NCBI GenBank assembly: GCA_963971425.1
Contig: OZ020517.1
Coordinates: 8,744,501-8,808,500 of the forward strand
DNA: 64,000 nucleotides
Origin: Bryoerythrophyllum caledonicum
Taxonomy: Eukaryota > Streptophyta > Bryopsida > Pottiales > Pottiaceae
Direction of reading: 5' to 3'
Shown: piece after piece, positions 21,420 through 61,335 of the stretch
Layout of the letters: each line of letters opens with the position of its first letter
Position numbering within the stretch: the stretch's first letter is position 1
The notes under the pieces: generated by a model
Told to the model about the DNA's origin: nothing
The model's database searches: none
What the model saw: the letters and a program-made list of their open reading frames with translations, nothing else
Translations under genes and position numbers: made by a program

Positions 21420-23300
21420 TGTGTATGCAAAGGAGATTGATAAGTGTGCATGGAGGCATGCGACTATATAAGAGGGGCGGGTCACTACAAAAGAAGAGCG
21501 GGTGGGTAGACAAGGAGGTAGGGCGCATACTCCAAAAGCTTGGGTGCAAACTTAAAAGGGTCGGACGCGTACATAAAGGGGTCGGCCGCGTACCTAATAG
21601 GGCTGCGTGTGTACCTATTGGGGCCGCGCGTACGCCAATTTTTATTTTTTTTCCTTTTGGGCGTATGCGCTCGGCCCTTGTACGTACGCGCCCGATCTAG
21701 AAGGTCAAGCACATGCTTTCAAGGGCTGAACTCGTCCCTAGAACAAAGAGAATCGCACGCGCCCATTCCTTGAACGTACACGCCCGATTTAAAAGGTTAG
21801 GCGTATGCTTACAAGGGTTCGGCCCATACTTCAAGGGATTGGGCCTGTATCTAAAGAGGTTCCGCGAGTACCTAAGGAGGTAGGGCGCATACTCCAAAAG
21901 GTTGAATGCAAACTTGAAAGAGTTGGGCGCGTGTCTAAAGGGGTCGAGCGTGTACTTAAAGGGGTCGGGCGCGTACTTAAAGGGGTCGGGCGCGTCTCTA
22001 AAAGGGTCGCGCGAGTACTTAAAGGGGTTGGGCCCATACTTAAAGGGGTCGGGCGCATCCCTAAAGGGATCGAGCGCGTACCTAAATGGATCAAGTGCGT
22101 CCCTAAAGGGGTCGGATGCGTTCCTAAAGGGGTCGGATGCGTTCCTAAAGGGGTCGAGCGCGTACCGACTAGGGCCGCGCGACACGCCAATTTTTAAATT
22201 TTTTTTTTTTGGCGTACGCGCCCAGCCCTTGTACGTATGCGCCCGATCTAGAAGGTCAAGCGCATGCTTACAAGGGCTGAGCTCGTCCCTAGAACAAAGA
22301 AAATTGCACGCGCCCATTCCTTGAATGTACGTGCCTGATTTAAAAGCTTAGGCGCATGCTTACAAGGGTTTGGCCCATACTTCAAGGGTTGGGCGCGTAT
22401 CTAAAGAGGTTTTGCGGGTACCTAAGGACGTAGGGCGCATACTCTAAAAGGTTGAGTGCAAATTTGAAAGGGTTGGGCGCGTGCCTAAAGGGGTCCGGCG
22501 CATACATAAAGGGGTCGGGCGCGTCCCTAAAGGGGCCGCGCGCGTACATAAAGGGGTTGGGCGCGTACTTAAAGGGGTCGGGCACGTCCCTAAAGAGATC
22601 GAGCGCGTACCTAAAGGGATCAAGCGCGTTCCTAAAGAGGTCGGATGCGTTTCTAAAGGGGTCGAGCGCACACCTCAAGGGGTCGGGCGAACACCTCAAG
22701 GGGTCGGGCGAGTACGTACAAGGGCTAGGCGCATATGCGTGAAAAAAATATAAAAGAATAAAAAAATGTGTAGGCGTACGTGCACAACCCTTATTTGTAC
22801 GCGCCTGGCCATTGTTCGTATGCGCCCAGCCCTTGGCTGTACGCGCCCGATCCCAAAGGTTGGGCGCATGCTCACAAAGGCTGGGCGCGTACCCAAAAAC
22901 AATTTTTTTTTTTCGGCGTACGCTCGCGGCTTTGTTTGGTACGCGCGCAACCTTTGTTCGTACGCGCCCAACCCTTCATGGTACGCGCCCAACCCTTGTT
23001 TGTATGTGCCCAGCCCTTATACGTACGCGCCCAGTCCAAAAGATCGGGCGCATGCTTACAAGGGTTGGACGTGTACGAAGAAAAAAAATAAAAAAAAAAA
23101 ATTTGGCGTACGTGCGCGGTCCTGTTTGGGACGCGCGCAGCCCTTGTACGTACGCGCCCGATCCAAAAGGTCAGGTACATGCTTACAAGGGCTGGGCGCG
23201 TACAATTTTTTTATTTTTATTTTTTTTGGCGTACGTGCGCGGTCTTGTTAGGTACGCGCCCAACCCTTGTTCGTACGCGGGCGACCTTCTAGTCGACGTG
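21420..23300. repeat. GC-rich degenerate satellite array, ~24-bp unit, mixed orientation
   Basis: From 21.42 to about 22.74 kb the sequence is mostly degenerate copies of a unit like GGGGTCGGGCGCGTACTTAA (about 24 bp). A block of several hundred bp is itself repeated: 21640-21950 and 22190-22480 align closely, sharing CGCCCGATCTAGAAGGTCAA. From about 22.77 to 23.28 kb the reverse complement dominates (GTACGCGCCCAACCCTTG), interspersed with T-rich patches. Because the unit length is a multiple of three, long frames such as repeated KGSGAYL open by chance on both strands. I treat them as non-coding. Confidence 0.8.
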
Positions 23301-23730
23301 TCAGCCATGTATTTGCCTTCGTGGCAGTGGATAAATTGATTTACCTCTAGTCATGGTCAAACCAGCGTTGACCCTTATCGGATGGACAACAACCTCTATC
23401 GGACGGACAGTGAGACGAACGGACACTACCGGATGGACGGACACTATCGGACGGACGGACGGCCGAACAACCCCGGGAAGTGGAGATTGATTTCTTTGTT
23501 TATCTTTTTGTTTATGAAATTGAGTGACGTGTCTGTCGCGCTTTACCATGGTTTTTGCTTTCACTCTTGATATAGTATGCCAGAAACACAAACACACGGA
23601 ACTTCATTCCAACAAGCGTTCTCGATATCTTGACAACAAGTCTGAACCCCAACTTTCTCAGAGAGATTGAGCTTGTATGGTTGTCGGAAGATTGGGTGGT
23701 CGTCTTCCAACTAAATGTAAATCGGTTTGC
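23301..23730. other. Junction sequence with CGGACGGACA repeats
   Basis: Short repeats of CGGACGGACA and CGGATGGAC cluster at 23368-23465, between the GC-rich array and the retroelement remnant. It could be part of the retroelement's lost 3' region, but no LTR was identified. Confidence 0.3.
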
Positions 23731-24545
23731 CTATGTAGCCCTCCAAATCATGGAGACTAAAGGCAAAACAACTACGATACAAACGTGTAAAAGCTCGTAC
23801 CCTTTGTGACTTGGCGCGGGTAAGATGTAGCCCAAATCCAAAGGCCAATCATCAAACTTTGTAGTCTCCTTCTCCACCGTAGAAGACTCACTATATACCG
23901 CCACGGCTGGTGATTGGTACTTGGTAGCAGAGAGGACATTAATGCCCCTAAAATCCTCACTCACGGGATCCACATAAAAATCCCTATTGTGATGATAAAG
24001 CCGGGAAAAGATGTCCCACGCATCCTCTTGCCCAAAGTCCTCAACCAAGGCTGCAAAGACACACTGAGCATGAAGCTCCTCAACTGCACGCCTCTTCAAA
24101 CAAAAAAACAACTCTACTTCCTCGATCTCTGTTAGATGTAGCACCAGTGCCCCCGGACCATCAGAGTCAGCCCCCAACACGCGTAAATGGTCACTCAAAC
24201 GGCGCTGAATAGCAAAACAAAGGCCACAAACCCAAACAAGGATGTTGAGGTCAATGGCTTAACCCAACAAATAACAACGCTTGCCTTCAGAGAGATCTGG
24301 TGCGGCGGTGGTGCCTGTCAAAAAGCCCATCGCTTGCTCCCTCTCATCGATACAAGGCTCCTTGTAAGTTTGAAAAGTAGAATCCCAAACCATGCCCGGA
24401 CCGTGTGTCCTAAAGGCAAAAGACCTCGGGTAGCACATCAACGTGGAAATGCCCCTCGAGTGAAACCATTATCGCTCATCATCCAGCTTGGAGACCTCCA
24501 TGGAAACACGGTGATTGTCATCGACCTCACGGTGCAAAGGTCGTT
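23731..24545 (-). pseudogene. 3' fragment of retroelement DNMT3-like methyltransferase plus following polyprotein
   Basis: This continues the methyltransferase of 28043-28888, interrupted by the insertion at 24546-28042. Without the insertion and one copy of TCGTT the frame runs on (LSQVQR, then PLHREVDDNHR). Stops occur near 24457 and at 24256-24258. The stretch around 24351-24262 has EREQAMGFLTG followed by RCYLLG, which fits the conserved C-terminal ERxxGF...RxxLLG region of DNMT3-type enzymes (motifs IX-X). Beyond it, 24198-23731 is an open stretch of 155 residues (including VEDFGQEDAWDIF) that I do not recognise. No reverse transcriptase follows before the element is lost. Confidence 0.65.
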
Positions 24546-27500
24546 TGTGGGAGTCTAAAACTCCCACTTGGTTGCCCCTACCAAAAAAATTAGTTAAAAT
24601 AGGATTTTTAGTATTAGCTAACTAGAAAAGTAGTTAATATTGTGTGAAATTAGATTAGATAGCCAATAGAGAAAATAGAGAAATGCTTAAGTAGTTAATT
24701 AGGTTTATAGTGGTGATAAAATCGGGTCTTAAAATCACTAATTTAAGTCCCGGGAAACAATATTAAAAGGATCCCGGGAGAGATCCCGGGACGTAAGTCT
24801 AAAATCACCACTTAAATCTAAATTAACTAGTTAAGTTTAGAAGGTAGTTAGAAGTAGTTGAGTGTTAGATACTAATTCTTGTTTGAATTAGTAGTAGTGG
24901 TAGAGAAAAGAAAAGAAAAGACAAAAAAAAAAAAGATTAAAAAAAAAAAAAAAAAAAAAAAGATTCCAAAAAATATATTAAAAAAAAAAAAAAAAAAAAA
25001 TTAAAAAAAAATACATACTCGGGTATCAACCCGGATATGAACTAGCTCGGGTACCAACCCGGGTATTGGCTGATACCCGGGTACACGGGTATCACCCGGG
25101 CAGCAGCCCGGGTATCTCCAGCTATCTTGGCCGACCTCCTCTCTTCCCGAAATTTTCCCTTCTCTTCAGAAACTGTTTTCTCTTCCAGGAACTTTCCTCT
25201 CTCTCCCTCCTTCTCTAAAATCTTGTCTTCCCTCCCTCAAATTTTCTCGTCTATCTCCCTCTCTAGTTCTCTCTGTCTTTCATAGGTTCTTCCTCTCTCT
25301 CTATTTTGTCTTTGTTTGGAGTTGGAGTTTGAAGAAGTAGTTGAAGAAGTGCAAAGAAGGAGATGCAACTAGGGTTTGAAGAAGAGAAGGTTTCAAGAGG
25401 AGGTAGCACAAGAGGTTTAAAGAAGAGGTGCGCGGGCTAGGCTTTGGTAGAAGAGGTGCGCGGACTAGGGTTTGGTGGAAGAGGTGCGCGAGCTAGGATT
25501 TGGTGGAAGAGGTGCGCGAGCTACGGTTTGGTGGAAGAGGTGCGCGGACTAGGGTTTGGTGAAAGAGGTGCGCGAGCTAGGGTTTGGTGGAGATTTTAGG
25601 GTTTTGTGGAAGTGGAGGAGATTTGTGGCCGAAGCGAGAAGATAAAAAAGACCAAAGAAGGAGGTTGCGGGTGCAACAACAAAGGTGACTCTTGCCCTTG
25701 TTGGGTTTCTTTTGTTTGTGAGAATTTCTTGTTTGTGAGTCTTTTCCTCTCTTGTCTACCGGGGTGACTCCCCGGTAATATCCTCCCCGGTCTAGAGAAA
25801 AAATTCCCCCCGGGGACTTCATCTAGACCTCATTGTGTTGTTTACATGTGTAGTTGTTGTCGATTGTCCTAGCCTTGTGGCAAGTTGTTATCTTAAGTTG
25901 TCTCCCTCCTCATATCATTTTAGGTCTTGCCCACAATTCCTATCTTTTTCCCGGTCAACCGATCAATCGGGAAGAACCTCTTTCTAAGTCCTTGTTTCCA
26001 AAGTCCTCTTCTCGATATCATTATATGTAACCTTGTGTTGTTAGTATGTTGCTAGATGTGTGAGACACCCATATCCACATACTCTAGTAAAGTGTTCCGG
26101 AGTTGTCTACCGGCTGACTGGTAGACTTGTGTTTCCGGGCCGGACCGGAGTTTGTGACAAGTTAATAGAGAGATTGGTGGAAGTACATGCATTTTGAGGA
26201 ATTTGTCCGCCCGGGACTACATGGCTCTCCGGTGAGTCGGGTGGATATCCCATCCTCCAAGGAATGGGACTAGAAGGTCTATGAGAGAAAAAGAAGCCTC
26301 CCGGTAGCTTCTACCGAGAAGGAACCGGTTGACCTCCCTTCCTCAACCCCGGAATCCTTGGTGGAGTCCTCTACGGCTATACTAATCGAGCTTAAAGAGA
26401 CTCCGCATGTATCTATAGATAAACCCGACCTTCCGGTCGATACTGCCAATCCACCGGTAGACCTCCCGGTTGAGACATCCGGCCTCCCGGGGGATTCTCT
26501 TGACCATGTTGGTACTTCCAGACGTGGTGACAATCTCTATACGTCTCAACCGGAAGAGTCTTCCGGATGAGTCTTCGTTATATGTCATGTGTTGGTTTAC
26601 CTCACCGGTTGGTGAGATGTTGTTTTAAGTTGCTAGAATTACACACTAGGGTGAGAGTAGTGATGTCGATGGGGCCCCATTGCGCATCTGGTCACTACCA
26701 CTTGAGTGGTTTCTCGGGCTACTTATTTTTGTTAGGAAAAGATTCACCGGTCCCGGGACTGCCGGACCGGAAGTCTTCCGGTTTACCGATCTTCCAGTTT
26801 ACCGGTCTACCGGTAATCCGCCGGTGACTAGGCTACCCTTGATTTTAGGATCTAGATGCCGTTTTGTCTTTTGGTGGAGCTACTTTTAAAGGGTAGCTAT
26901 TGACATTAGTGCACCTCCTAGATGCCGTTTTGTCCTTTTGCGGTCTAGTTTTAGAGCGTAGCTATTGACTTTAGTGCACTCTTTAGATGCCATTTCCACC
27001 TTTTGGGGATCTAGTTTTTGAGGGTAGCTAGTGGCCTTTGTATACTTAAGGGCCTTGGACTCTTGTGTTATGTACTCTTCTCTTTGTTGATCTCCTCGTG
27101 TTTTGCCTTCATTGCTTGTGTCTAGAGTCTTTGTTGAGCTTGTGTGAGTGGACCGGGAGAGAGTTGAGTCCTCCTAGTGTGTCTTTGCTAGGTGTGCAAG
27201 GTTGTGACTTGTTGTGTGTTAAGTGATTGAGTGTGAGTAGAGAAATCCCGAGGGGCTAGGATATCTGGGTTAGATAGGTAGAGTGAGGTCCGGAACTTGT
27301 GCTCTAGACTTTTCACCGGTGGGACCGGGAAGAGTTGCTTTACTGGATGGGATCCGGGAAGCCCACGGCTATTTATGATAGCCTCCCTTAAGTGGGAAGT
27401 GTTCGGATTGGTGGGGAATAGGGGGTGACATCCCCCTTCTCTCGGTACACCGGGAGACATCCCGGCTAAGCCTGAGTCTAGTGAATTCCGGGATTATTAC

Positions 27501-28042
27501 CCTTGCAGTGGATGAATTCCGACGATCCCCGTGGAAGGTTGTTTTGCTCATATGATTTACTTAGTACTAACTTTTTGTGAGTCTTGTATCTTCTTGCTTT
27601 GATTCATTGGGTGTGGTTGTAGTTGGAACCCGGGCTTGCGTGACCGGTTTACCGGGACAAGTTCCCGGTAGATTGTGAAGACCGATGAACCGGCTGCGAC
27701 CTTTTTAACTCTTTCAAGGTGTAGGGTTAGATTGTGGATATTGTGGCCTCTGGACTGCGAGAACGGAGGGCAGTGACTTTCCGGGCACTGTATAAACTTA
27801 CCGGAAATCTACTCTGACGCTCAACAGAGTTTAACTGAAACACATATGGTTACTTGTTACCGGTTACTAAGGTACCGGAGAAGCCATCCTCTGGGATGTG
27901 CCGAGGTATTATGTGTGAATTGTTGTTAAGATTTAAAGAGTTTGATGCACGATAAAAATCCCTGGAAACGATCTGGTAAGGTGGGCTTGTTTAAGGTTAA
28001 TTTCGGTTAATTTTGATAATAACGAACCACTAGACTACGACA
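24546..28042. mobile_element. 3.5-kb TG...CA insertion, probable solo LTR
   Basis: It begins TGTGGGAGTCTAAAACTCCC and ends ACTAGACTACGACA. TCGTT flanks it on both sides (24541-24545 and 28043-28047), and removing it restores the methyltransferase frame. TG/CA ends with a 5-bp duplication are typical of LTR elements. No internal direct repeat or coding domain was found, so a long solo LTR is favoured. The ends also match as a short inverted repeat (TGTNGNAGTCTA), so a non-autonomous DNA transposon is an alternative. It contains A-tracts (24905-25010), a CT-rich block (25130-25320), six 28-bp tandem repeats (25423-25590), a CCGG-rich region (25.75-27.9 kb) and three ~67-bp repeats (26850-27040). 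Confidence 0.65.
25423..25590. repeat. Six tandem 28-bp units
   Basis: The unit AAGAGGTGCGCGAGCTAGGG plus TTTGGTGG is repeated six times with few substitutions, in exact 28-bp register. It lies inside the 24546-28042 insertion. Confidence 0.9.
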
Positions 28043-28888
28043 TCGTTGCACTTGAGAAAGTGCAAACGTGAGTGTCGCCAATGATGCCATGTTGGTCCAA
28101 ATCCAACGTGGCCAATGGGCGTAAGAGCCCAACGCCGTGGCATCAATAAATGTGGGGGGACCAAGAAGGTGATGGATATATGCTTCATCCTCACGCACTT
28201 TCGTCCGTGTATTCCCCAATGGAGATACATTCTCAAAAATATACCCCGGTGGCGTCGATTGGTGGGTAGTCCACCATTGGATGAGCCTAAGCAATTCCGC
28301 AGAGAAATCCAACCTTGGATCATCCAAACCACGTCCACAACCCGCTCGTGAATGGCCTTGACAAGGCCATCCGGCAAGCACCAAGTCCACGTGATCTAAT
28401 CGGCGAAGATCATCCTTACTGATCAATGTCACATCACGTTACAACTTGCCAAAAGACCCTCGAATCGCAGAAGGTGGTAACTGCTCCGGTTACAACGCCA
28501 GAAGACGGTGAATGTGATGGTGAGCGGCATGGTTGGCTGCAATGCCACTATTTATGTGGATATATAGGCGTACCTTGAGCCCGACCTGAAACACAACCGC
28601 CAACCCCGTACCGATACCGACAAATAGCTCCACGAGGGTAATACCTTCATCCGGTAGTCGCCACTGAATAGTGCAAGCTAACAACGGAATGGAAGAGTCC
28701 ACTGAAAGTTGTAGAGCATCAATAGCATCCACAATCTCCCGACTGCGGCGTGTGAGCTTCAACTGAGTTTTCCATGGAGGAAGGGGATCTTTGCAATGAC
28801 GTGCAGAGATCTCCACTAATTCGTGCTCACATGATTCCGCTACCCTGACATAAAAGCATATGTCTCCTCCAAAAGCGTAGAACCACAT
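28043..28888 (-). pseudogene. Retroelement-borne DNMT3-like cytosine-5 DNA methyltransferase, 5' part
   Basis: Known C5 methyltransferase motifs occur in order in one frame. Motif I is VELFVGIGTGL (28633-28601), motif IV is AGWPCQGHS with the catalytic Cys (PCQ at 28366-28358), motif VI is YIFENV (ENV at 28234-28226), and a DNMT3-type motif VIII is DATALGSYAHWPRWIWTN (28144-28091). The GIxTGL form of motif I and the order I-IV-VI-VIII point to a DNMT3-like enzyme rather than a permuted DRM. Two TAA stops (near 28490 and 28433) and a Trp in place of the first Arg of the AHRAR block show decay. It lies downstream of gag and protease on the same strand, so it is part of the retroelement polyprotein. 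The 3' part is at 23731-24545. Confidence 0.8.
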
Positions 28889-29013
28889 GACAAATCAGAT
28901 GCCAAAGCATTGCACCCGAACATTGCATCCGTCGTGGAAGTCATCGCGCTAACTGCAAAGTCAACCGAAATGAGTTCATTTCTACCATCAACGGCAAACC
29001 ACCCAAGTCTAGT

Positions 29014-29505
29014 CTAAGCCTCCTCCGTCCAATTATCCACCCCGAAACCGAGGGGATAAAGCACCTGTTGACCCACCAAAATGTTGTAGTTGGTGGCGCC
29101 AGTCACAACGCACTGGAGAGATACGTGAGAGAACAAAGAACCAGATCTCACGCCAAATATCAAGTGCAACGGATGTTGGGTGTAGCCGATGACCTTCTCC
29201 GTGCCCCCCACCGATGTAAAAATCGTAAATGGGCAAGGCTCGAGGTCCGAAGCACCTAAACCCAAATCCAAGGCTAGTTGCTTGCCAATCATCACTGGCT
29301 GAGCTCCGGAGTCTAACGTAACACGGAGAGAGGTAGCTCGGGTGGGGTTGCCGTCTGTACGACCAACAACCATAATTCTATCATCGTTTGTCAAGCGTAC
29401 CACCCCTGGACGTACACTGCATCGCTCCCGTGCCGACCAGGCCGCAACGTCAGACAAATAAGCCATATTAGAGATCAAGGACTGATCCTCGGAGGAGTGC
29501 ACCAT
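29014..29505 (-). pseudogene. Retroelement aspartic protease region
   Basis: A frame of 163 residues contains LRVTLDSGAQPVMIGKQLA, the D-S-G active-site signature of retropepsins, followed by a hydrophobic segment ending in NYNILVGQQVLYPLG (compare the ILG-type second motif of these proteases). It lies between gag (higher coordinates) and the methyltransferase (lower). It is in a different frame from both neighbours, so at least one frameshift has occurred or was built in. It would release the polyprotein subunits. Confidence 0.65.
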
Positions 29506-31400
29506 AGGTGTGGAAGTGGCATGGGCCTCAACACGGAAATGGCCTCCGCCACCAACTTTGCCCGTATGGCCACCAAATCCTCCTCGGTGGATGGAGTTGT
29601 CACTGCCTACGACACCTCCAACGATGGCATGGGCACATTGCCCTCCGACATACTACCCGCCAAGTGGAATGCACCGGATGATTGAAAATCCGGTGTCAGA
29701 AAGTCCACATCGGCAAACATCGGCAACTACAACACCTTATACGTTAAGGAGTGTGTGGCATCTTCACGACTAGAGAAAATCGGTGGGACCGGGGTCGGAA
29801 TCGGAGCGACAGTTGAAGTTTCCGCATCCGCGATGCTGAAGGAAAGAGGTAATTGGAAGTGACCAATTTGGTCCGGCAAATCCACGTGGTGTGGACGGCC
29901 ACTAACCCCTTGCAAAGAAGGAGAAGGTGCCATCGCCTATGCGGTAGTGTGAGAACGAGTGGCAATTGCTGCCACCACCTCTTTAGAAGCGCCATACATG
30001 TAGCAATCTAGGGCTGAAGATAAGCCCTGACCCCTCACCGGAGGTTGTTTGTTCGCCACTTGCCTCGAAGAAGCCATCGCACTCATCTCCTTCCTCAATT
30101 TTGCCATTTCAGCTTGAAGTTTCTTCACAACCACTGATTCAGCAGCCAAAGACCTTTGGTGCTTCTCCGGGTGAAGAGCAATACAGTTCTCATCACTGTG
30201 GCCAGTCTTGCCACAATGAGAATATGTCAGAGCCTTCTTCCCCTTGCCCCGAGCCTTCTCTGTAGTCTTGACCGCCTCGGTCTTGGGCTTGGCTTTCACG
30301 GTGCATGCCTCCTTTTTCTTGGAGCAATTGAGGTCCCCCTTGGTGTGACCCGTTTTCCCACAAGCCCAATAATGCTCAATTTTTTCAGGTTGTGCCTTCG
30401 CCAAGCTTCTGGTTGCGGTGGCAACCTTCTTTGGCTTAAAAGTGTCCATAAGCACCGTGACCAAATCCGTGGCCTCGCTTACGCCCAACGCTCTATCAAG
30501 CGCTTCCACCTCGGCAAACGCTTGCGTCAAAGTGGCGTTCCAGTGATACCGAAAAAGAGGATGTGTACTAATCAACTCCACCATCCTCTTATCGAGCTTA
30601 AAGATGAAGATCTTCACCAGCTGGCGCTCCGTGAACACATCACCGGCCTCCGCTAACAACCGTGTCAATCAAATAAACGTAGTGCAAGGGACATCGGCCT
30701 TCTCCCCGCAGAAATCCTAGATGTAGTGCATCTGATCACGCTTGAACCCCTCGTATTCCACCTTTAAGTGCGCCATGAATTGCGCCAAATTATCAAAGGC
30801 AGGCGGATCGCCAACCGCCATCAATGTTGCATGTGTAGCTACGACCAAATGTGACATGGCCCCCATGCTAGACCGTTCGGCCACAATGGCAATGCCCTTG
30901 CTCCTGGAATCCTCATCGAAGAAACCTTCTTCCACCTAGGGCTCCTCGGTGGAAGTCGAGAGTTGGGCAACCCCACTTTCCTTAAGCGCAGTTACCAACT
31001 CCATGCGTTGGCTCCAGTACTCCTGAACGGGACGCAACTGTGCGTCGTGCTGCATGGTCCATCGTCCGTATGACAAAAGGGTCTCCAGCTCTAAATGTTG
31101 GGGCAAGAGCTCGAATGCATACCAGTTGTTAAACGACGACGTCCGCTAGCGCTTCTCCTTCATCCACGTTTGGAATCGAAGCCGCCAATTGGGCAGGGAG
31201 ATGCCTCCAGTCCGTCCAGAGAACTTATCTTGCACGACATGACGGAGATCGTTTTCCATGTCATCAAATGTGCCCACGCCCGAGATCCAAAGCGTACGGT
31301 AGGTATCCAACGCCGAAATAGGCTCAAAAGCCTCGACAATATCTGACCCTGGCCCAAAGTCTGTGGTGGAAACACTCTTTGAGTGGTCTAGTGAGGAAGA
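29506..31400 (-). pseudogene. Retroelement gag with zinc knuckles
   Basis: One frame can be followed from about 31310 to 29730, broken by single stops. TAG occurs in KR*RTS (near 31147), P*VEE (near 30938) and YI*DF (near 30719), TGA in FI*LT (near 30670), and TAG in TTA*AMA (near 29936). The core (30668-29937) has two knuckles, WACGKTGHTKGDLNC and SHCGKTGHSDENC. In both the first Cys is replaced by Tyr (TAT for TGT), so zinc binding is lost. Lys-rich linkers follow. The family's gag would package element RNA. Family assignment is open: no reverse transcriptase remains to tell Gypsy from Copia. Confidence 0.65.
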
Positions 31401-32036
31401 GCGGTAATTCCGACTTCATGTACTCACCATAAACAACAACCACCTCGGGACCTACCTACGGGTACTATCTAAAGGGTAAGGGTACGAACGTGCAACTTTG
31501 CACCTCCAAAACCACTAAACTCTGTGGTTCACCGTTCATCACCTCTAGCTAGCACATGTCCAATCACAATCCTCCACATAGAAAGGTCTTGCCGGCCATA
31601 AACCCGACTTCACCCATACATTACCATAACACGATCTAGTACAACAAGAAAGGGGCAACCGAAAAACATCAGCAACAAGCCCGCAACACGAGGGAGGTAC
31701 TGCACAAGAATCCAGAAATCAAAATCGGATCTTCTCCCCCACCAACATATAAGCAAAGAAGACAAAGAGTCAGAGCCACTGGCACACGCCTCTAGTGGAT
31801 GGCGAGAGTGGGAAACCTGCAATCCAAAGTCTAGCACGAAGGAAATAATGGAACTTGTCCTTGGTGTTCAAAAACAAAAACCCCCAAACAAAATCGAATT
31901 CAATAGTAAGAAACGCGACAAACGCCAATCCACTACTAAAATTGGATTTAATCGCGGAATCCCAAACAATAGGTGCAAATGTCACTATATACAAGTAAGA
32001 ATACTCTGATAATCTACATTCAAAGTTTAGCACTAA
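31401..32036 (-). other. Probable leader or LTR remnant of the methyltransferase retroelement
   Basis: This lies upstream of gag and before the 195-bp satellite. Two short minus-strand frames lack domains. No matching LTR was found at the other end of the element, and no convincing primer-binding site is visible, so the 5' boundary is not fixed. Confidence 0.3.
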
Positions 32037-32039
32037 TTT

Positions 32040-35000
32040 TTTTTTTATAAGGTTACATAAACATGAGATTGTTTACGAACGTCACGAAAAAAGGTCAAAA
32101 TATTTTATTTTTGTAGATAACAAATTTTTGCACCACTACTTTTAGATTTTTCTCGCGAACTCAAATCCGCAATTGGAATTCAAAAATGAGTTAAACCGCA
32201 AAATTTCTTGCGAACTCAAATCCGCAATCGGATTTCATAAATAAGTTAAACTACACTTTTTTTTTATAATGCTTCCATTACAGGGACGTCGTGAAATTTC
32301 GGTTGAAAACTCACGCATTCATGTGCTTGGGCATGAAAAAAGGTCAAAATATTTTATTTGTGTAAACTAAAAAAATTAGTAGCACTATTCTTAGATTTTT
32401 CTTGGGAACTCAAATCCACGATCGGATTTCAAAAGTAAGTTGAACTACAAAATTAAAAAAAAACAATGCTTGCTTAAAAGGGACGCCCTGTAATTTCAGC
32501 ATAAAACTCACTCGTTCATGTGCTTCTGCACGGAAAAAGGTCAAAATATTATATTTCTGTAAACCAACAAATTTTAGCACCCTTACTCTTAGATTTTTCT
32601 TGCGAACTCAAATCTGCAATCGGATTTCAAAAATAAATTAAACTACAAAATTAAAAAAATATGCTTCCATTATAGAGACGCTATGAAATTTCAGCTCAAA
32701 ACTCTCGCATTCATGTGCTTGGGCATGAAAAAAGGTCAAAATATTTTAATTTTGTAAATTAACAAATTAATGCACCGCAAGTATTAAATTTTTTTTCGCA
32801 AACTCAAATCTGCAATCTGAAATTAAAAATAAATCAAACTGCAAAATTAAAATAATTAAGCTTCCATTCTAGGGATGCCTTGAAATTTCGGTTCAAAACT
32901 CACGCATTCATGTGCTTCGGCACGAAAAAAGGTCAAAATTTTATATTTTTGTGAATGAAGAAATTTTTGCACTGCTACTCTTAGATTTTTCTCGCGAACT
33001 CAAATCCACGATCAAAATTCAAAACTGAGTTAAACTACAAAATTATAAAATTAATGCTTGCATTATAGGGACGCCCCAAAATTTCAGCTCAAAACTCACG
33101 CATTCATGTGCTTCGGCATGAAAAAAGGACAAAATATTTTACTTTTGTAAACTAACAAATTTTTGCACCACTACTCTTAGATTTTTCTCGCGAACTCAAA
33201 TAGGCGATCAAAAATTACGAAATATGTCAAATTCCAAAATTAATAAAATAATGCTTGCATGATAGGATCTCCTCAAAATTCCACCTCAAAACTCATGCAT
33301 TCATGTGCTTCGGCATGAGAAAAGGTCAAAATATTTTATTTTTGGAAAGTAGCAAATTTTTGCACCACTACTCAAAGATTTTATTCGCGAACTCAAATCT
33401 GTGATTAGAAATAAAAATGAAGTTCAACCGCAAAATTATAATATAGACTCCCTAAAAATTTCAGCTCAAAATTCACTTAATCATGTGCTTCGGCACGAAA
33501 AGGTCAAAATATTTTTTTTTGTAAATTTACAAATTTTTACACTACTAGTATCAGGTTTTCCCCGGGAACTTAAATCCGCAATCAGAAATAAAAAATAAGT
33601 TGAACTGCAAAATTAAAAAAATTAAGCTTCCATTCCTGGGATGCCTTGAAATTTTGGTTCAAAACTCACGCATTCATGTGCTTCAGCATGAAAAAAAGAC
33701 AAAATATTTCATTTTTGTAAACTAAAATTTTTTAGTACCACTACTCTTAGATTTTTCTTGCAAACTTAAATTTGCAAGCGAAATTCAAAAATCAGTTAAA
33801 CTGCAAAATTAAAAAAATAATGCTTGCATTATATGGGCGCCTAAAAATTTCAGCTCAAAACTCACGCATTTATGTGCTTTGGCATGAAAATAGGTCAAAA
33901 TATTTTGTTTTTGTAAACTGACAAATTTTAGCACAATTAGTATTAAATTTTTCACTGAAACTCAAATCCGCGATCTGAAATAAAAAATAAGTTCAACTTC
34001 AAAATTAAAAAAAGTAAGCTTTCATTCGAGTGACACCTCAATAAATTCGGTTCAAAACTCACGCATTCATGTGCTTTAGCACAAGAAAGGGTCAAAATAT
34101 TTTATTTTTGTAAACTGACAAATTTTTGCACCACTAGTATTAAAAAAAATTGCGCAAACTCAAATCTGCAATTCGAAATAAAAAATAAGTTGAATTGCAA
34201 AATTAAAAAAATTAAGCTTCTATTCAAGGGACCCCTTGAAATTTTTGTTCAAAACTCATGCATTCATGTGCTTCGACATGAAAATATCAAAGTATTTTAT
34301 TTTTGTAAATTAACAAATTAATGCACCACTAGTAATAAAAAAATTTGCGCAAACTCAAATCTGCAATCTGAAATAAAAAATAAATTATACCGCAAAATTA
34401 AAATAATTAAGCTCCATTCTAGGGACGCCTTGAAATTTTGGTTGAAAACTCACGCATTCATGTGGTTCCGCACGAAAAAGGGTCAAAATATTTTATTTTT
34501 GTGAACTAACAAATTTTAGTAGCACTACTCTTAGATCTTTCTTGCAAACTCAAATCCGCGATCGGAATTCAAAAGTAAGTTAAACTGCAAAATTAAAAAA
34601 ATAATAATGCTTGCTTAATAGGGACACCTTATAATTTTAGCATAAAACTCACTCATTCATGTGCTTCTACACTGAAAAAGGTCAAAATATATATTTTTGT
34701 AAACCAACAAATTTTTGCACCATTACTCTTAGATTTTTCTCGCAAACTCAAATCCGCAATCAGAATTCAAAAATAAGATAAAATGCAAAGTTTTAAAATA
34801 ATGCATGTATTCATTGGACGCCTTGAAATTTGAGCTCAAAACTCGCGCATTCATATGCTTTGGCACGAAAAAGGGTCAAAATATATTTATTTTTTTAAAC
34901 TAACATTTTTTTTGCACCACAATTGTTAGATTTTCCTCGCAAACTCAAATTCGCAATCGGAATTCAAAAATAAGTTTTACTGCAAAAATTTAAAAATTAT

Positions 35001-35665
35001 GGCTTGCATTGTAGGGACGCATTGAAATTTTAGCTCAAAACTCAAGCATTCATCTGCTTCGGCACAAAAAAAAGTCAAAATATTTTATTTTTATAAACTA
35101 ACAAGTTTTTGCTCCACAACTCTTAGATTTTCCTCGCGAACTAAAATTCGCGATCGGATTTCAAAAATAAGTTTAACTGCAAAAAATATAAAATAATGCT
35201 TGCATTCTAGGGATGCTCTAAAATTTCATGTCAAAACTCACGTACTCATGTGCTTCAGCACGATAAAAGGTCAAATATTTTATTTTTGTAAATTAACAAA
35301 TTTTTGCACCACAACTCTTAGATTTTCTCGAACTCAAATCCGCGATAGGAATTCAAATATAAGTTAAATTGCAAATGTTACAAACTTATGTTTCAATTCT
35401 AGGGACGTCCTCGGATTTTAGTTCAAAACTTACGCATTCATGTGCTTCGGTACGAAATATATTCAAAATATTTTTTTGTTGTAAACTAACAAATTTTTGC
35501 ACCACTACAATTAGATTTTCCTCGCAAACTCAAATCTGCCATCGTAATTCAAAAATAAGTTAAATTGCAAAAGTTAAAAAAATTATGCTTCCATTTGAGG
35601 GACGCCTAGAAATTTCAACTCAAAACCCACGCATTCATGTGCTTCGGCACGGATTTAGGTCAATG
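32040..35665. repeat. Satellite array, ~195-bp unit, about 18 copies
   Basis: A unit containing CGCATTCATGTGCTTCGGCA, then AAAAGGTCAAAATATTTTAT, a TTTTGCACCACTACTCTTAG block and CGAACTCAAATCCGCGATCG recurs in the same orientation. The CATTCATGTGCTT core lies near 32319, 32515, 32709, 32905, 33101, 33298, 33482, 33671, 33868, 34065, 34260, 34456, 34652, 34848, 35049, 35248, 35428 and 35632. Spacing averages close to 195 bp. Units differ by many substitutions and small indels. It is non-coding. Confidence 0.9.
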
Positions 35666-38091
35666 ATTTATTTGAGTCCTTGACGGATTTCGGTCTTAAC
35701 GTAGTGTGAACACTTATATAACCAAATCGGTTTAGAAAATAGCTCGAAAGCATAGTGTGAATGGAAATAAAATGAAACTGGTTTGAATATACCTCCACAG
35801 CGCAGTGTGAATAGAAAAAAAAGAACCGGTTCAGCCGCCACAACACAATCTAGGGAAGAAACTTGATAAACTTTGAAGCCTCCTAACTTCCTCAAAAATC
35901 ATCCGTTTTGAGCACCATTTGTTGCGTTACGACCGTTGCAACGTGCTCTACCGTAATATATTGAATACCTACAAATTTTATTTGATCACCCAAGCTCAAC
36001 TTTGGGAACCGTAGAAGAAAATGCGGGAGGTCTTTGTCAAGTGAACAAGTATGAAATCACTCACGTAGTCAAGTGCCTTGCACTTTACAAAGGAAGAATC
36101 AATGAGTGCAGGTAATATAAGAGAATGCGGAGCCTTCACTAATGATAAACAATCACTTACAAGCAAAGGCATCATTAAACACTCTCAAACTTACTCACAA
36201 AGCTTCACTTAACAAAGACGTCAAGTCAAGGATGTGTGCGACACTATACACACACAACCTTAAGTAGATGGAAATCATCCACGGATGAATGTTGTGCGCG
36301 GCCGTACGTTCCTAAACCCGTAGATTAGTAACAAACTAGTCTACACTAAAACACTACAATGGAAGAGGCCCTCGATGCCACGTCCCGTCATAGATTTATT
36401 TGTAAAGTGAAATATGAGTTTGATCTCATTTCTCATTTTAAGTATTTATTAAATCAACCCTAAATAGCATTAGATATCTACAAGATCAGCTCAAAAAGGA
36501 AAAAAACTAAAATATATGGAACAAAAAATTCCTTCTTTAATCTCAAAAGAGGCTAAATTATTTCAAGCTTGAGTTTAGATACCACTAAGCTCTTCAGTAT
36601 ATGGGCTATCAAGAGTGAAAAATTAAAGTAGTATTTTAAAAATCAAAGTAGTGTATTTAAATAGAATAGATACTTCATTAAAAGTTTTGGTGACTTTAGA
36701 AGTAGGTTGATTATTTCAATGAGCATCAAAATTTGTACTTTTCTTCCAAAATATGTAGTGATGAAACCCGAAATCGTAACATGTTGAAGTTGTCAATGAA
36801 AGAATGAATGTATCTACCTTAATAGACTCTTGAACAGGTTAGTGTGTGCATAATAAATCCCTCTTGAATAAACAGGGTTAAGGAGAGAATTTGTGTATGA
36901 GGGAGACAAAGAGAATGGGTGATATAAAAGAATTATGGTGAACATGCAAATTATTCACCATCAAGTGAAATACAAAGCTAATTTTGCCAAATAATCAATT
37001 TGCTTAGAAGAAATGTTTCCACAATAAATTTAAAAAATAAAATGAATACATAAATATTTAGGATTTTCATGTTAGATTTCGATAAAAGGAAAATAAGAGG
37101 CATAGAAGTAGCGCACTAACCAATTAAAATGTCAACCAAATTTAGGAGACATAAAGCAGAAAAAACTTATTACATTCACATGCATACAAAGTGTGTTGAG
37201 AGGCGGGTACAAAGTGGTTACAAGTTTGGTTGTAAGAAAAAAATGAGAATCATAATGATCATAGCATGGAACCAAAAAAAAGTTACTCAGTTACTAGTGG
37301 AGCAAGGGTTAGGGTTTAGAAAATGGTTTATCATCTATATTATTCAGAAGATTTTGTAGAGTCTTCTTAGTATGATTAATTTGAATGAGATCAATGAGGG
37401 CCATGAAGCATGACTTGGTTATGCATACCACTTTATATATCATAGAAAATGTTTTTTTTGGTATCAAATTTTAGATCTGTCATTCTTAGAGTTTTTTATA
37501 TTTTAATTATTATGTTAAATTTTGAGATATTTTAGTCAAAAAATTTAATTACTTTTTTTTTCTCTAAGAAAGTGGTAAAGGTAGCATGGGACATAAGCTG
37601 GGATGCATTCTACTACATGCAATTTGAACAAATATGTATAAGATAATTGGTTGAAGTTATCTTATTCACATCAAGGTGGGTTACATTGAGTTATTGTGAA
37701 TAATACAATCATACACGTCTTCTATCTAATTTAGGAGATTCATGTCATGCCATGACGAAGGCAAGAGTTATGGGATTTAGTTCATGAGTGTATAGCTACT
37801 TCCATATTGAAGCATTTATTTATGTGAGGAATATGTGGTAACTATCTAAAATATATTGGTATAATATGATACATGAATCTTGATGTTTATCTTTTTAAAA
37901 TTATTAGTGTAATACAAAAACTCTTACTAAAAATCACATGAGTTCACTCTCCATTCTCCATTCTATACAACTGCTCATAAAAATGCTATTCAATCATCTA
38001 CTTCAAATTATTTTGTACTAGTTGTTATCTTGGAAGATTAATGATCCTTTTTGTTTCTAATTTTTCAGCTCCTAGAAGATATGTGCTTTAA
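35666..38091. other. Gene-free AT-rich sequence
   Basis: No gene is supported. Short repeats around TAGTGTGAA lie at 35700-35810, just after the satellite. Otherwise it is AT-rich with isolated short frames and no recognised element boundary. Confidence 0.4.
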
Positions 38092-56634: not shown

Positions 56635-56947
56635 TGTTGAGAGACCAAGGTGAGAGAGAAAGAGACGAGCAAAAGAGCAGGAGCTCATTGTGAGGTCCAG
56701 GGTTTAATCCCTGGCTGGATGGTACAATAGGAGTCCGTTCACTGGTGATAGGATCCTAGTGTCGTACCATTAGTGGTAGTTAATCTAATATTAAGTGTCA
56801 TGATCAGGTGGTAATCCCACTACGATATGGTAATCCCACTACGATACAGTTAGGTGAACCGTACTTGGGTCTAGAGTAGGTTTAGACTAGGCTCTAGTTA
56901 GGAGAGGACCCTGGAGTGGATGGATGTGCTATCATCCTATCTCAACA
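56635..56947 (-). repeat. 3' LTR of the Copia element
   Basis: 313 bp, TG...CA. It contains a perfect hairpin (CCAGGG TTTAAT CCCTGG) and two tandem copies of TGGTAATCCCACTACGATA. It is 3' relative to the minus-strand coding direction. Confidence 0.9.
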
Positions 56948-57008
56948 CTCCTCCTCGAACGATGAACTTCCTCATTAAAAAACCTAAGTATTAGGAAAAA
57001 GAGTGAAT

Positions 57009-59193
57009 TCACCGTTTGCCTAATTCTTCTAGAGTTCGCATTCCGGCTGCCCTTATGAGTTTTCGATGTTGATGTGCGGGAAGCGCCTTCGAGAGTACGT
57101 CGGCTATGTTCTCCGCTGAAGCAATCTTCTTCACTTGGATCTGGTTTGTATCCGTCAAGTCCTGTGTGTATCCGAAGATGTGAGGACTTATATGTTTTAT
57201 TCTATCTGCTTTGATGAAGCCCGAGGTGACTTGTTCCACACACGTGGCATTGTCCTCGAAAATCGTTGTCAGCTTGTTTGAGTTGGCAATCCCACATTGT
57301 TGAGAAATAGCCTGTTGCATCGTCCTCAGCCACACAGCTTCCCTGGACGCTTCATGGAACGCAAGTAGTTCTGCATGGTTGGTGAAGGTGGCTGTCACGG
57401 TCTGCTTGGTGGATCTCCACGAGATTGGTGCACCGTTCTTCACGAAGATGTATCCCGTTTGGGATTTTCCGGAAACAGGGTCGGTCTTGAAGCCAGAGTC
57501 GGCGTAGCCAATGATATCTCTGCCGGCGCTCTTTTTAAAGTGTAGGCCAAGGTCTTCAGTGCCGTGTAGGTAGCATAGGAGATGATTGATCCCTTGCCAG
57601 TGGCGCATTGTAGGTCGCTGGATGTGCCTTGCTAACACACTAACTGCAAATGAGATGTCGGGTTTCGTATTTGTCGCAAGGTAGAGTAGCGCCCCCACTG
57701 CAGCTAAGTACTGTGTTTTGTCGACCTCCTCCTCGCCTTCATCAGCGAGTCTGTAGGGGTCATCTTCGGTCTTGCTTCGGCCAATCATGGGCGCGGACAA
57801 TGCATTCGCGTTTTCCATGTTGAATGTGGCCAGGAGCTTCTTAACATAGGTTTGTTGATGAAGTAGTATACTCCCATCAGGATAGTGCTGTACCTGTAAT
57901 CCAAGGCAGTACGACGTGCGGCCTAATACTTTCATTTCAAAAGTTTTAATTAGTATGCTCTCCACATGAGCGCATAAGGCTGCAGTGCCAATGGAATTTA
58001 AGTCATCAACGTATACTGCCAAAATGACAAACCCTGATTCGTCCCTCAAGACAAATACGCAGGGTAGCGCTGGATGATTAGAAAATCCATGCGCGAGCAA
58101 AAAACTTTTCAGGTGGTGGTACCATGCCCTACCCGCTTGCTTCAGGCCATATAGTGCCTTTTGGATTCTCAATCCAGTGAACTTGCCGGGCTTTACGGGA
58201 CTTGCAGTAGGCAAGAAATCAGGTGGCGGTTTAATATAAATTTCCGCGTCCAAATCTCCGTAGAGATAGGCTGTTACTATGTCGAGTAATCGTGTTTCAA
58301 GCGTCATTTCGACCGCGAGGCTCAGTATATATATGAAAGAGGTACTGTCCATAACTGGGGAATAAGTCTGCTCGAAATCAATGCCTGGTTTTTGAGTATA
58401 ACCCTGAGCTACGAGTCGGACTTTGAACCGGACCACATGTCCATTTTCATCACGTTTGCGCGTAAATATAAGCCTGTGTCCTATCGGTTTGGTGTCCAGG
58501 TTTGTGATTAGTGGTCCAAAGAGGCCACGTTTTCGTAGGGACTTGTATTTCGCTTGTAGGGCAGTTTCCCATTGCGGCCAATCGGCTCTACGTGTAGCCT
58601 GATCTAGGGTCATAGGGTCAGCGTCGAGGTTAGTCAATCTCGAGACGAATATTTCTGGATCCTCCCATGGGACTCCAGTGGACTCTATCACTGTTGACGT
58701 GAGACGTCGGTCCATGTGCATGGTAGCTACATGCGCATGCGAGGTGCTAGGGGCTGGACTAGAGTGCCGAGTTTTCCTCTTTTTTGTTGGGGCTATAGGT
58801 ACTGTGTTTCCCGAGCGTGGTAATGGGTTTCTGATTATACGTGGACCTGAATGAAATCTGTCTGGGATTTTCTCAGCTAGATTCTTTAGGTTGATTAGTT
58901 TTCGGACCTCTGCGTCAGCTAGTGCGGTCCGAGGATCAGGATTCAAGGTCAAGGTTTCTAAGGCCCTGAAATTCAAGTCAGAGTCTCGACTTTGGTGTAA
59001 CGAACCAGGGAATTTATTTTCCACGAAGTTACAGTTCAAAAATCTGGCTTTGTATATAGCATCGCTAGTTGGTAGTTTGTACCGTATTATGCTAGGTGTG
59101 TCATATCCTAGGTAGATGTCCTTATGCCTATGAGGTGCGACGGTTTTTAATTTTGGTTCAGGTAGAGGTATCCATATGGACCTCTTCTTTACT
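57009..59193 (-). pseudogene. Copia reverse transcriptase and RNase H
   Basis: The frame is open from about 59193 (SIWIPLPEPKLK) to the stop at 57009. The segment YLGYDTPSIIRY followed by FVENKFPG is the linker normally found between Copia integrase and reverse transcriptase. Numbered from 59039, the reverse transcriptase has LLDIVTAYLYGDL with the first catalytic Asp (253), ALYGLKQAGRAWY, and YVDDL (343-347). RNase H has IIGYADSGF, a NHAELLAFHEASREAVWL segment and RIKHISPHIF. These domains look intact. The frame differs from the upstream protease frame because the segment between them is deleted, so it could be made only with frameshifting or by a helper element. Confidence 0.85.
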
Positions 59194-60630
59194 CAAATGA
59201 GCAAGGCTTGCTTCCATATCAGAGATGGTAAGCTCGTATAGGCCGTTGGCTCCCGCGTGTGCGGTGGCGAGGATCCTCGGCCCTCGCCTGAGCTCCAACG
59301 CCTCTTCATCGTTCGCACTCGCAGTGGAAACGTGGATACGGTTCGCTCTCAAGTCTCGGTAGCTGATTAGGCTACGAGGAGCGTCCGGGGCGTACATAGC
59401 CCGTTCACAAATCAAAGGGTGTCCCCCGGGCAATGCGATTGTTGCCCGGCCCTCACGAAATCTGAAATTTTGTGGCCCTGCAATGGTGACGATCTCACAA
59501 CATTGCCATGGGTTGTTTTGATTTTTGAACTCAAAGAACCTAGAGTCCTGCAGTATGGTATGAGTTGATGCACTATCGAGCAAAGCTATTTTTGCTTTGG
59601 CCGTCTGTGATACTCTTTGAACCATGTCTATCTCAGGATCTAGTTCGCAGAGCGTGAGGGATGGTGCATCAAGAGTATGCGTTTCTCTTTTCCCATCCTT
59701 CAGCGCCTGGAGTTCCTTAAACATTTCAGTGAAATAGTGTGGAGCACGACATTCTTTGGCATAGTGTCCCTTTCGGCCACACTTATGACAAGCTCCTTTA
59801 ACACTTTTACTGGACGACTGTGACGACTTGTCTACTTTTGGTTTGTGTCCATACCTCTTGTGCGTTGAGCGTTCACCTTTCGGTTTGTTCCATTCTCCTT
59901 TCTGTTTCCGCTTGGGTGCATCTGTGACGTGTGACTCGCGGCTGGGGTTCGGCTCCTTCTTCGTGGATGAAGTCCCCGCGCTCGGAGTTTTCGGTGTCTT
60001 ATCAATCTCGCTCGCGTGAACCTCCTTTACTGGGCGATATTCTGCATTCTTGAACAGTAGCTGTTGTTGCTTCTCGGCTAACAGTAAGTATGACATTAGT
60101 TCTGAATGTTTTGTGAATTTCATGTTACGGTACTGCTGAGCTAGAATCGCATAAGCAGGAGGAAAGGTGGACAACGTCTTATCTATAAGATCGGTGTCGG
60201 TGAGCCTGTCTCCACAGAGTCGGAGTTGCGCCGCTATTCTGTGAAGCTCTGCGTTGAAGAGGAGGAAGTTCGGGAAGTCTAGTATGCGGAGATTTATCCA
60301 ATCACTCCGTGCCTGGGGCAAAAATATAGTCTCCTCATGCTTGAGTCGCGCCTCCAGCGCCTTCCATAGCTCCGCAGGTTCATCGACTTGTATGTATTGC
60401 AGTCTCAGCGACGTGTCGAGGTGTCGTCTGATGATAAGTAGCGTTTGCCATATGAATGGTGGTGGTAGGTCCACCGCAGTTGTCTCGTCCAGGGCTGCGA
60501 TCAGTTCCTCTGCACACAAGTAGGTGCGGACGTCAATACTCCATTCTAGGTAATTAGATCCATCAGGTTCCAGAGGATCAAAATAGAGTGGTTGTGTCCG
60601 GTTCTCCCGGACTCACGGCAGTGTAGCCAT
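59158..60630 (-). pseudogene. Copia gag and protease
   Basis: The frame is traceable from an ATG at 60630 (MATLP) but meets a TGA at its sixth codon. It then runs open through EPDGSNYLEWSIDVRTYL to the stop at 59158. The middle is the UBN2-type gag region. A single CCHC zinc knuckle (CHKCGRKGHYAKEC) lies near 59790-59745. The protease active site LLDSASTHTIL lies near 59585-59550. The frame continues to GLYELT, where the pre-integrase region normally begins, and stops soon after. The histidine-rich RLGH motif and the DDE integrase core expected next are absent. Confidence 0.8.
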
Positions 60631-61022
60631 GCATGTAGGTTCTATCGTGACCTAATTCGTGTAGGTTCTAGGATCTGAAGCTAAGTGTTGGTTCAAAGGC
60701 TTAGTCGCTAGGATCTAGTTTAAGTTTAACGTGTGCATGCAGTCACTGTGAGTGAACAGTCAGTGGGTTGTGTCTCTCGACGTTTACTGTTCCTGTGGGC
60801 TGTATCTCTAGGTATTGACGATTGTGTCCGTGTATGCTCTCTTGACGTCCACTATAGGCAGTATTCCTTAGACGTAAGACTACTAATGTGCTCTTCCTCT
60901 CCGCTGGTGTGCTCACTGATCACTGAAAAAATATAACTAATACAACATGAGGTGATCTATGGTCGATCCGCTCAGTAGAAGGAAAAAAAATCAGGATCTG
61001 GAGCAAGAGCGTGCTGATAACG

Positions 61023-61335
61023 TGTTGAGAGACCAAGGTGAGAGAGAAAGAGACGAGCAAAAGAGCAGGAGCTCATTGTGAGGTCCAGGGTTTAATCCCT
61101 GGTTGGATGGTACAATAGGAGTCCGTTCACTGGTGATAGGATCCTAGTGTTGTACCATTAGTGGTAGTTAATCTAGTATTAAGTGTCATGATCAGGTGGT
61201 AATCCCACTACGATATGGTAATCCCACTACGATACGGTTAGGTGAACCGTACTTGGGTCTAGAGTAGGTTTAGACTAGGCTCTAGTTAGGAGAGGACCCT
61301 GGAGTGGATGGATGTGCTATCATCCTATCTCAACA
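61023..61335 (-). repeat. 5' LTR of the Copia element
   Basis: Same length and ends as the 3' LTR, with four transitions between the two copies. Directly inside it the minus strand reads CGTTATCAGCACGC, which is not the common initiator-Met primer site TGGTATCAGAGC. Confidence 0.9.

What the first reader, a model, noticed from the sequence alone, without database searches (positions are those of the whole stretch)
23731..31400. A DNMT3-like DNA methyltransferase carried inside a retroelement polyprotein
Gag zinc knuckles, a retropepsin and then C5-methyltransferase motifs I, IV, VI, VIII and IX-X lie in order on the minus strand. Methyltransferases captured by LTR retrotransposons have been reported in dinoflagellates and charophyte algae. 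A copy in what appears to be a land-plant genome, placed after the protease, would extend that. A retroelement that methylates its own or host DNA is a rare strategy. Seen: motifs and order. Inferred: that all were one element.
Basis: partly seen in the sequence, partly recalled or inferred. Interest (0 to 1): 0.93.

Follow-up and report, generated by a model that had tools for sequence, protein, structure and literature searches.

The report
Moss retrotransposon carrying a DNA methyltransferase
A plant genome, probably a moss, holds many copies of a mobile element that carries its own DNA-methylating enzyme beside its particle proteins and has an unusual end structure; the copy in this window is a dead one.

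Summary
The window copy is decayed: broken frames, a 3.5-kb insertion inside the methyltransferase, its 3' end lost in the reverse transcriptase. Its genome (437 Mb, probably a moss) holds at least 35 near-full-length relatives of its ORF1; 11 of 30 fetched have ORF1 open. They show: A1 - 5'UTR - ORF1 (gag, protease, DNMT3-type methyltransferase) - UAG - ORF2 (RT, RNase H, DDE integrase, PHD) - B1-A2-B2. Of 22 copies testable at both ends, 19 have a perfect 4-bp target duplication at ends TGTC...GACA. There is no LTR pair: the repeats are split direct repeats, DIRS/Ngaro-like, with a gypsy-type integrase. The stop lies in the leaky context CARYYA in 29 of 30 copies (28 UAG, 1 UAA). The methyltransferase is under purifying selection (dN/dS 0.16) and by profile nearest to DNMT3. 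Precedents exist (Klebsormidium, Symbiodinium; de Mendoza 2018). New here: a land-plant host, the enzyme on the Gag side of a leaky stop, and target duplications on split repeats. What the enzyme does for the element is inferred.

The parts
36043..36390 (-). A1, the 5' terminal repeat of the window copy
   Evidence: 81% identical over 352 columns to the A repeat of copy L002; ends read from the sequence printed (starts TGACGGGACG, two bases shorter than TGTCACGGGACG)
36030..36042 (-). primer-binding-like 13-mer ACTTGACAAAGAC just after A1
   Evidence: printed; the 13-mer is complementary to positions 182-194 of the A repeat of L002; self-priming is inferred
32204..35651 (-). 196-bp x 17.7 tandem array inside the element's 5' UTR
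   Evidence: TRF; partial related units in the UTRs of L002, L004 and L010; 5' regions of other copies match on both sides of it
29529..31430 (-). gag with two zinc-knuckle-like motifs (broken)
   Evidence: tblastn 61% identity to residues 1-623 of P0006
28843..29529 (-). retropepsin (LDSGA) and linker (broken frame)
   Evidence: tblastn 72-79% identity to P0003, P0005, P0006, P0009; Asp_protease_2 6.4e-3 in the window and 1.9e-4 in L002, both below Pfam's cut-off
28043..28858 (-). C5 methyltransferase, motifs I, IV, VI, VIII
   Evidence: PF00145 4.7e-9; 73-78% identity to P0002, P0003, P0005, P0006, P0009
24546..28042 (-). nested insertion, TGTCGTAG...CTCCCACA, between 5-bp AACGA duplications
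   Evidence: flanks printed; no repeat shared by its two ends in a self-comparison, so solo-LTR-like (inferred)
23920..24545 (-). C5 methyltransferase motifs IX-X and ORF1 tail
   Evidence: tblastn 61% identity over residues 1100-1335 of P0006
23917..23919 (-). site of the ORF1 stop; reads TAC here, TAG in 28 of 30 other copies
23615..23916 (-). start of ORF2 (reverse transcriptase side), truncated
   Evidence: tblastn of the ORF2 of L032: residues 1-29 and 28-101, 86 and 76% identity

Best explanation
This is a degraded copy of a retrotransposon family of a plant, probably a moss. Less damaged copies encode gag-protease-DNMT3-type methyltransferase in ORF1 and, after a leaky UAG, reverse transcriptase-RNase H-integrase-PHD in ORF2. 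Lying on the Gag side of the stop, the methyltransferase should be made in Gag-like amounts and enter the particle. The likeliest role is de novo methylation of the element's own cDNA, in the particle or on arrival in the nucleus, so that new copies enter chromatin already marked like resident DNA. Shown: structure, domain order, target duplications, conserved stop context, purifying selection. Inferred: readthrough, packaging, enzyme activity, self-methylation. Reverse transcription is probably self-primed (inferred). Integration uses ends (TGTC...GACA) that would lie inside an ordinary element's LTR (B-A): the integrated form A-body-B-A-B is a circular permutation of BA-body-BA, so a circular intermediate opened at a B|A junction is the simplest route (inferred).
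For: 35 near-full-length matches of ORF1, a lower bound; domains. In-frame UAG with CAATCA in 28 of 30 copies and UAA-CAATCA in one; UAG-CAACCA in the one copy read of a second family; both fit CARYYA, the plant-virus readthrough motif (PMC3542737, one passage seen). Perfect 4-bp duplications in 19 of 22 testable copies. A1 found in 24 of 24 5' ends looked at; B-A-B in 21 of 24 3' pieces. Two copies end after a single B with perfect duplications, and one (L007) runs on into a further A: variable numbers of B-A units, all bounded at B|A. A1/A2 identity 97.2-100% in 19 copies. dN/dS 0.156 for the methyltransferase, 0.215 for ORF1. PCQ and ENV invariant in 14 of 14 aligned proteins. First 29 of 53 solved-structure matches are DNMT3A/B/C. 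Retrotransposon DNMTs can methylate CG de novo (PMC5890265, abstract and sections 9 and 11 read).
Against: No activity, expression or methylation data here. The single window piece alone ranks bacterial HaeIII above DNMT3B. One published retroelement enzyme (SymbioLINE-Dnmt) was inactive in yeast. C-to-T differences between copies are enriched at CG and CHG alike, as ordinary host silencing would give. L002 and L018 have no target duplication and L017 has one mismatch. Single-B copies and the L007 extension could also arise after insertion, by recombination between the B repeats. The 5' repeat of the second family was not found in the 2.35 kb fetched. Pfam's protease match is below its cut-off.
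Confidence: 0.6

Rival explanations
1. Gag-protease and methyltransferase come from two adjacent unrelated elements that only look joined in this window.
For: In the window the two parts lie in different frames and the methyltransferase is split.
Against: One frame from gag through methyltransferase in 35 of 35 scored matches and in database proteins of 1252-1437 aa; target duplications bound the whole unit.
Confidence: 0.01
2. The methyltransferase acts in trans on the host or on competing elements (altering host methylation, silencing rivals, or slowing its own spread) and not mainly on its own cDNA.
For: de Mendoza et al. discuss host-side and self-limiting roles (PMC5890265 section 11); copies are many; a PHD finger in ORF2 could place products on chromatin.
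Against: The Gag-side position points to the particle. Nothing measured here separates the two.
Confidence: 0.25
3. The domain methylates the element's RNA, or protects cDNA from a nuclease or deaminase, rather than giving an epigenetic mark.
For: A Gag-linked enzyme meets the genomic RNA; RNA methylation and protection from deamination are both raised for the published elements (PMC5890265 section 11).
Against: By profile the domain is nearest to DNMT3; tRNA methyltransferases of the DNMT2 kind score 23.5-29 against 68.2 bits. This does not bear on the protection variant.
Confidence: 0.12
4. It is an ordinary LTR element and the split repeats are deletion products.
For: Domain order is that of gypsy elements apart from the methyltransferase.
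Against: The same ends TGTC...GACA with target duplications in independent insertions; B-A-B with the same GACA-GC-TGTC junction in a second family whose repeats otherwise show no similarity.
Confidence: 0.03

Closest known systems
KnitGypsy-Dnmt3 of Klebsormidium nitens (de Mendoza et al. 2018, PMC5890265; section 9 read)
   Same: Gypsy-type coding domains with a Dnmt3-type enzyme without motif rearrangement; the figure legend says its repeats are structured as in a DIRS retrotransposon; purifying selection on the enzyme.
   Different: [quoted passage not shown] here in a land plant, in the same ORF as gag, upstream of a leaky stop. Sequences could not be compared, and whether its insertions have target duplications was not seen in the parts read.
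SymbioDIRS-Dnmt3 of Symbiodinium (same paper)
   Same: Retroelement with a Dnmt3 enzyme; that enzyme methylates CG.
   Different: DIRS retrotransposon of a dinoflagellate; here a DDE integrase and 4-bp target duplications.
PAT/Ngaro split-direct-repeat elements (recalled; DIRS order)
   Same: A1 - body - B1 A2 B2 repeat plan.
   Different: No tyrosine recombinase match in ORF2; integrase core and zinc-binding domains instead, with target duplications.
Tf1/Sushi and Tcn1 gypsy elements (PMC6317226, passages seen)
   Same: Self-priming; Tcn1 elements occur in mosses and club-mosses and are mostly predicted to self-prime.
   Different: Those are LTR elements; the word methyltransferase does not occur in the main text of that survey.
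Marchantia polymorpha MARPO_0008s0049 (P0044)
   Same: Gag-like part, protease and methyltransferase in the same order by eye; 41% identity over 84% of the query.
   Different: Named hypothetical protein; its element context was not examined.

Membership tests
Ty3/gypsy LTR retrotransposon | PR-RT-RNase H-integrase domain order | tested here: met
   with the methyltransferase between PR and RT (protease match below Pfam's cut-off)
Ty3/gypsy LTR retrotransposon | identical long terminal repeats at both ends | tested here: not met
   A at the 5' end, B-A-B (or single B) at the 3' end
Ty3/gypsy LTR retrotransposon | short target-site duplication | tested here: met
   4 bp in 19 of 22 testable copies
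DIRS/Ngaro order | split direct (or inverted) repeats | tested here: met
DIRS/Ngaro order | tyrosine recombinase in place of integrase | tested here: not met
   Pfam at E up to 0.1 on one ORF2: rve and Integrase_H2C2, no recombinase family
DIRS/Ngaro order | no target-site duplication | tested here: not met
DNMT3 methyltransferase | catalytic domain nearest to DNMT3, motifs in standard order | tested here: met
   profile: DNMT3 68.2 bits, DRM 40.7; motif order. The single window piece alone ranked HaeIII first
DNMT3 methyltransferase | ADD/PWWP domains of animal DNMT3 | tested here: not met
   no such Pfam match in one ORF1; these are the animal companions, land plants have another domain and algae none identified (PMC12344493, passage)
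DNMT3 methyltransferase | de novo DNA methylation activity | not testable with these tools
   needs a bench assay
DRM methyltransferase | rearranged motif order | tested here: not met
   motifs run I-IV-VI-VIII-IX-X
KnitGypsy-Dnmt3 family | sequence kinship to the Klebsormidium elements | not tested
   their sequences were not identified in what was fetched

The most novel reading that the evidence does not exclude
A group of retrotransposons, at least two families of it in this genome, has exchanged LTRs for split direct repeats while keeping a gypsy DDE integrase. It integrates from circular DNA with one or more B-A units, opened at the B|A junction (conserved GACA-GC-TGTC), and it delivers a de novo DNA methyltransferase as a stoichiometric particle component.
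Probability: 0.5. Interest if true: 0.83.

Novelty: new variant of a known kind. Interest (0 to 1): 0.74.

Why it matters
[quoted passage not shown] Here a land-plant genome carries many such elements, some apparently recent. If the enzyme marks new copies before or at integration, the host's silencing signal has become part of the parasite's life cycle, testable in culturable mosses.

Tried and rejected
A viral-contig scan with A1 gave one locus, 30% identical over the motif I-IV stretch, not followed. A single-sequence search against solved structures ranked HaeIII first; the profile search ranked DNMT3 first. The A2 search gave no protein named DNMT3 or DRM among the rows shown (names are given for a part only, and the weak hits P0102-P0106 were not examined), so the tree has one DNMT3 row, made of printed pieces, on a long branch; its place is not used. 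The C-to-T spectrum does not separate self- from host methylation. The 5' repeat of the second family was not reached. Copy number by the A repeat was not obtained. I did not look for sister elements lacking the enzyme. Literature searches that bear on novelty: open PMC library only, judged by titles and abstract starts (a part of the hits was listed) and by passages of PMC6338049, PMC12344493, PMC10538959 and PMC6317226; none of what I saw described a methyltransferase-bearing retrotransposon of a land plant.
Full report
1. What is in the window. The piece 28007-28438 (minus) matches PF00145 at 4.7e-9; no other of the 9 pieces given passes a Pfam cut-off. Relatives settle it: a homology search scored on 261 residues of the methyltransferase frame gave 12 proteins, 11 of them 61-80% identical, 9 of these 11 being 1252-1376 aa long. 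tblastn of seven relatives (six, P0016) places gag, protease, methyltransferase and tail collinearly between 31430 and 23920, as far as each query reaches, with frame changes near 29529 and 28850 and a gap filled by the insertion 28042-24546, which has AACGA on both sides. The copy is dead.

2. The window copy is larger than reported. Its 5' repeat A1 lies at 36390-36043. The 196-bp tandem array (17.7 copies), which looks like a satellite, is part of its 5' UTR: sequence on both sides of it matches 5' regions of L002 and L018, and partial units occur in L002, L004 and L010 but were not found in L018, L029 or L031. On the 3' side it continues about 100 codons into ORF2 and stops near 23615; the stop between the ORFs reads TAC.

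3. Other copies. The genome is held as G000: 437,360,962 bases, 894 contigs; the window is C4:8744501-8808500. P0005 (1330 aa) matches 35 places over nearly its whole length at 73-75% identity, 11 of them without a stop (4114 candidates at the first look, 35 scored: a lower bound). Of the 30 fetched, 11 have ORF1 open and 24 keep the exact strings of motifs I, IV and VI. ORF2 is open in both copies for which it was fetched. Pfam on one ORF2: RVT_1 5.6e-31, RNase H 9.6e-38, Integrase_H2C2 2.7e-17, rve 9.2e-14, PHD 1.9e-10 at residues 990-1034; on one ORF1: Asp_protease_2 1.9e-4 (below cut-off) and DNA_methylase 8.8e-11.

4. Expression signal. ORF1 and ORF2 share a frame and are separated by one stop: TAG CAATCA in 28 of 30 copies, TAA CAATCA in one (L021), lost by rearrangement in one (L029). 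The one copy read of a second methyltransferase-bearing family has TAG CAACCA. Both fit UAG-CAR-YYA, the plant-virus readthrough consensus (PMC3542737, one passage). So the methyltransferase is on the Gag side. Readthrough itself is inferred.

5. Ends. Both ends were sought in 24 copies (20, four more). A1 was found in 24 of 24; it starts TGTCACGGGA in 22, AGTCACGGGA in L017 and TGTCACGGCA in L019. The 3' side reads B1 (about 105 nt) - GC - A2 (about 357 nt, 291 in L015) - B2 in 21 of 24. Of these, L007 runs on into a further A, so its true end was not reached. L012 and L019 end after a single B. In L029 only one B end lies in the piece fetched. Of 22 copies testable at both ends, 19 have a perfect 4-bp direct repeat of the target, including L012 (GGGT), L019 (GCCC) and L020 (TCTA); L017 has one mismatch, L002 and L018 have none. 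B was not found in the 1.5 kb upstream of any of the 30 ORF1s. A1 and A2 are 97.2-100% identical in 19 copies (only part of A1 was at hand in 10 of them), so some insertions are recent. In the second family B1 and B2 (233 nt) are identical, and the only match to family 1 found there is 14 nt at the B1/A2 junction.

6. Reading of the ends. One, two or more B-A units between the body and the end GACA, always opened at B|A, is what circles with one, two or three 'LTR' units would give if integrase cut at B|A. Single-B copies could equally come from recombination between B1 and B2 after insertion, which would keep the duplication; L007 could come from unequal exchange. The data do not decide.

7. 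Priming. Directly after A1 stands ACTTGACAAAGAC, complementary over 13 nt to A positions 182-194 of L002; 0 of 1342 control 14-mers from ORF1 match A that well. It was seen in 7 of 8 copies where the A1 end was located (the eighth, L018, has one extra A) and in the window copy. This resembles Tf1-type self-priming (recalled for Tf1; Tcn1 elements of mosses and club-mosses are predicted to self-prime, PMC6317226, passages). The transcript start is not known.

8. The enzyme. In 14 aligned proteins PCQ (motif IV), ENV (VI), the motif I glycines and two motif VIII arginines are invariant (motif names recalled). A profile of seven domains ranks DNMT3A/B/C in the first 29 of 53 solved-structure matches (68.2-57.7 bits), DRM next (40.7), then HhaI (33.7), HaeIII (31.1) and DNMT2-type enzymes (29 and less). 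Against: the single window piece alone prefers HaeIII (22.1) to DNMT3B (16.4). dN/dS over 36 pairs of nine open copies of equal length is 0.156 for the methyltransferase, 0.198 gag, 0.262 linker and protease, 0.411 tail, 0.215 overall; the pairs are not independent and the copies were chosen for being open. Two further open copies were left out for their length.

9. Distribution. The A2 search gave 91 proteins (8000 candidates scored), among them Marchantia polymorpha MARPO_0008s0049, one with methyltransferase and RT (P0042), and two with methyltransferase and integrase (P0056, P0078; P0013 is a third): in these last three the enzyme directly precedes the integrase, another place in the polyprotein (and 46 for P0013). 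In a tree of 34 rows the window piece and L002 are sisters (85/82), and L073, of the second family, lies outside the well-supported 21-row clade that holds them. PF00145 finds 123 places over its cut-off in G000 (1053 at the first look, 123 scored). Of these, 13 rows have frames of 1359-1371 aa; the one fetched (C2:18871154) belongs to the second family, 74-80% identical to the twelve database proteins listed for it.

10. Host. Chlorophyll-binding genes of G000 were compared with solved structures. An Lhca3-like piece fits 8htu, 7xqp, 7ksq and 6l35 best (430-422 bits, next 407); a second fits chain 9 of 7xqp and 8htu (408 and 406, next 350); a third was uninformative. I recall these entries as Physcomitrium patens photosystem I and chain 9 as the moss protein Lhcb9; organisms are not named in the tool output.

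11. Function. The best reading is particle-borne de novo methylation of the element's own cDNA, as proposed for the published elements (PMC5890265: abstract, sections 9 and 11 and passages seen). C-to-T differences between nearest copies are 1.77% at CG, 1.89% at CHG and 0.80% at CHH (18 pairs among 25 of 30 copies, unpolarised). This fits methylated copies, but not by whom.

12. Novelty. Methyltransferase-bearing retroelements are known from dinoflagellates and Klebsormidium, and the latter's repeats were called DIRS-like. A land-plant family, the Gag-side place with a leaky stop, target duplications on split repeats, and two families in one genome were not met in the searches and passages named in Tried and rejected.

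Noticed in passing
L074 (G000:C14:16016200-16017500, minus): An open, intronless C5 methyltransferase frame of 370 aa (PF00145, 218 bits, positions 3-322 of 324), bacterial-looking, inside a 22-Mb contig: possible horizontal transfer.
   Followed up: partly
window 56635-61322, minus: A separate copia-type element: 300-nt direct repeats 99% identical, ORFs of 484 and 727 aa, a YVDDL motif.
   Followed up: no
window 24546-28042: The nested insertion, TG...CA ends and a 5-bp duplication, with a 28-bp tandem array at 25394-25617; its coding content was not searched.
   Followed up: partly
P0018 (database): A piece of this element family is filed at NCBI as a methyltransferase of a Candidatus Obscuribacterales MAG, probably plant DNA in a bacterial bin.
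   Followed up: no
L073, L078, L079 (G000:C2, about 18.871-18.877 Mb): Second methyltransferase-bearing family with its own leaky stop, a PHD-like motif and a B-A-B 3' end; its 5' repeat was not reached.
   Followed up: partly
L012, L019, L007 (3' ends): Copies ending after a single B (with perfect target duplications) and one continuing B-A-B-A: either circle-derived insertions or later recombination.
   Followed up: partly
window 21750-23300: Arrays of 21-bp and related repeats beside the truncated 3' end of the element.
   Followed up: no
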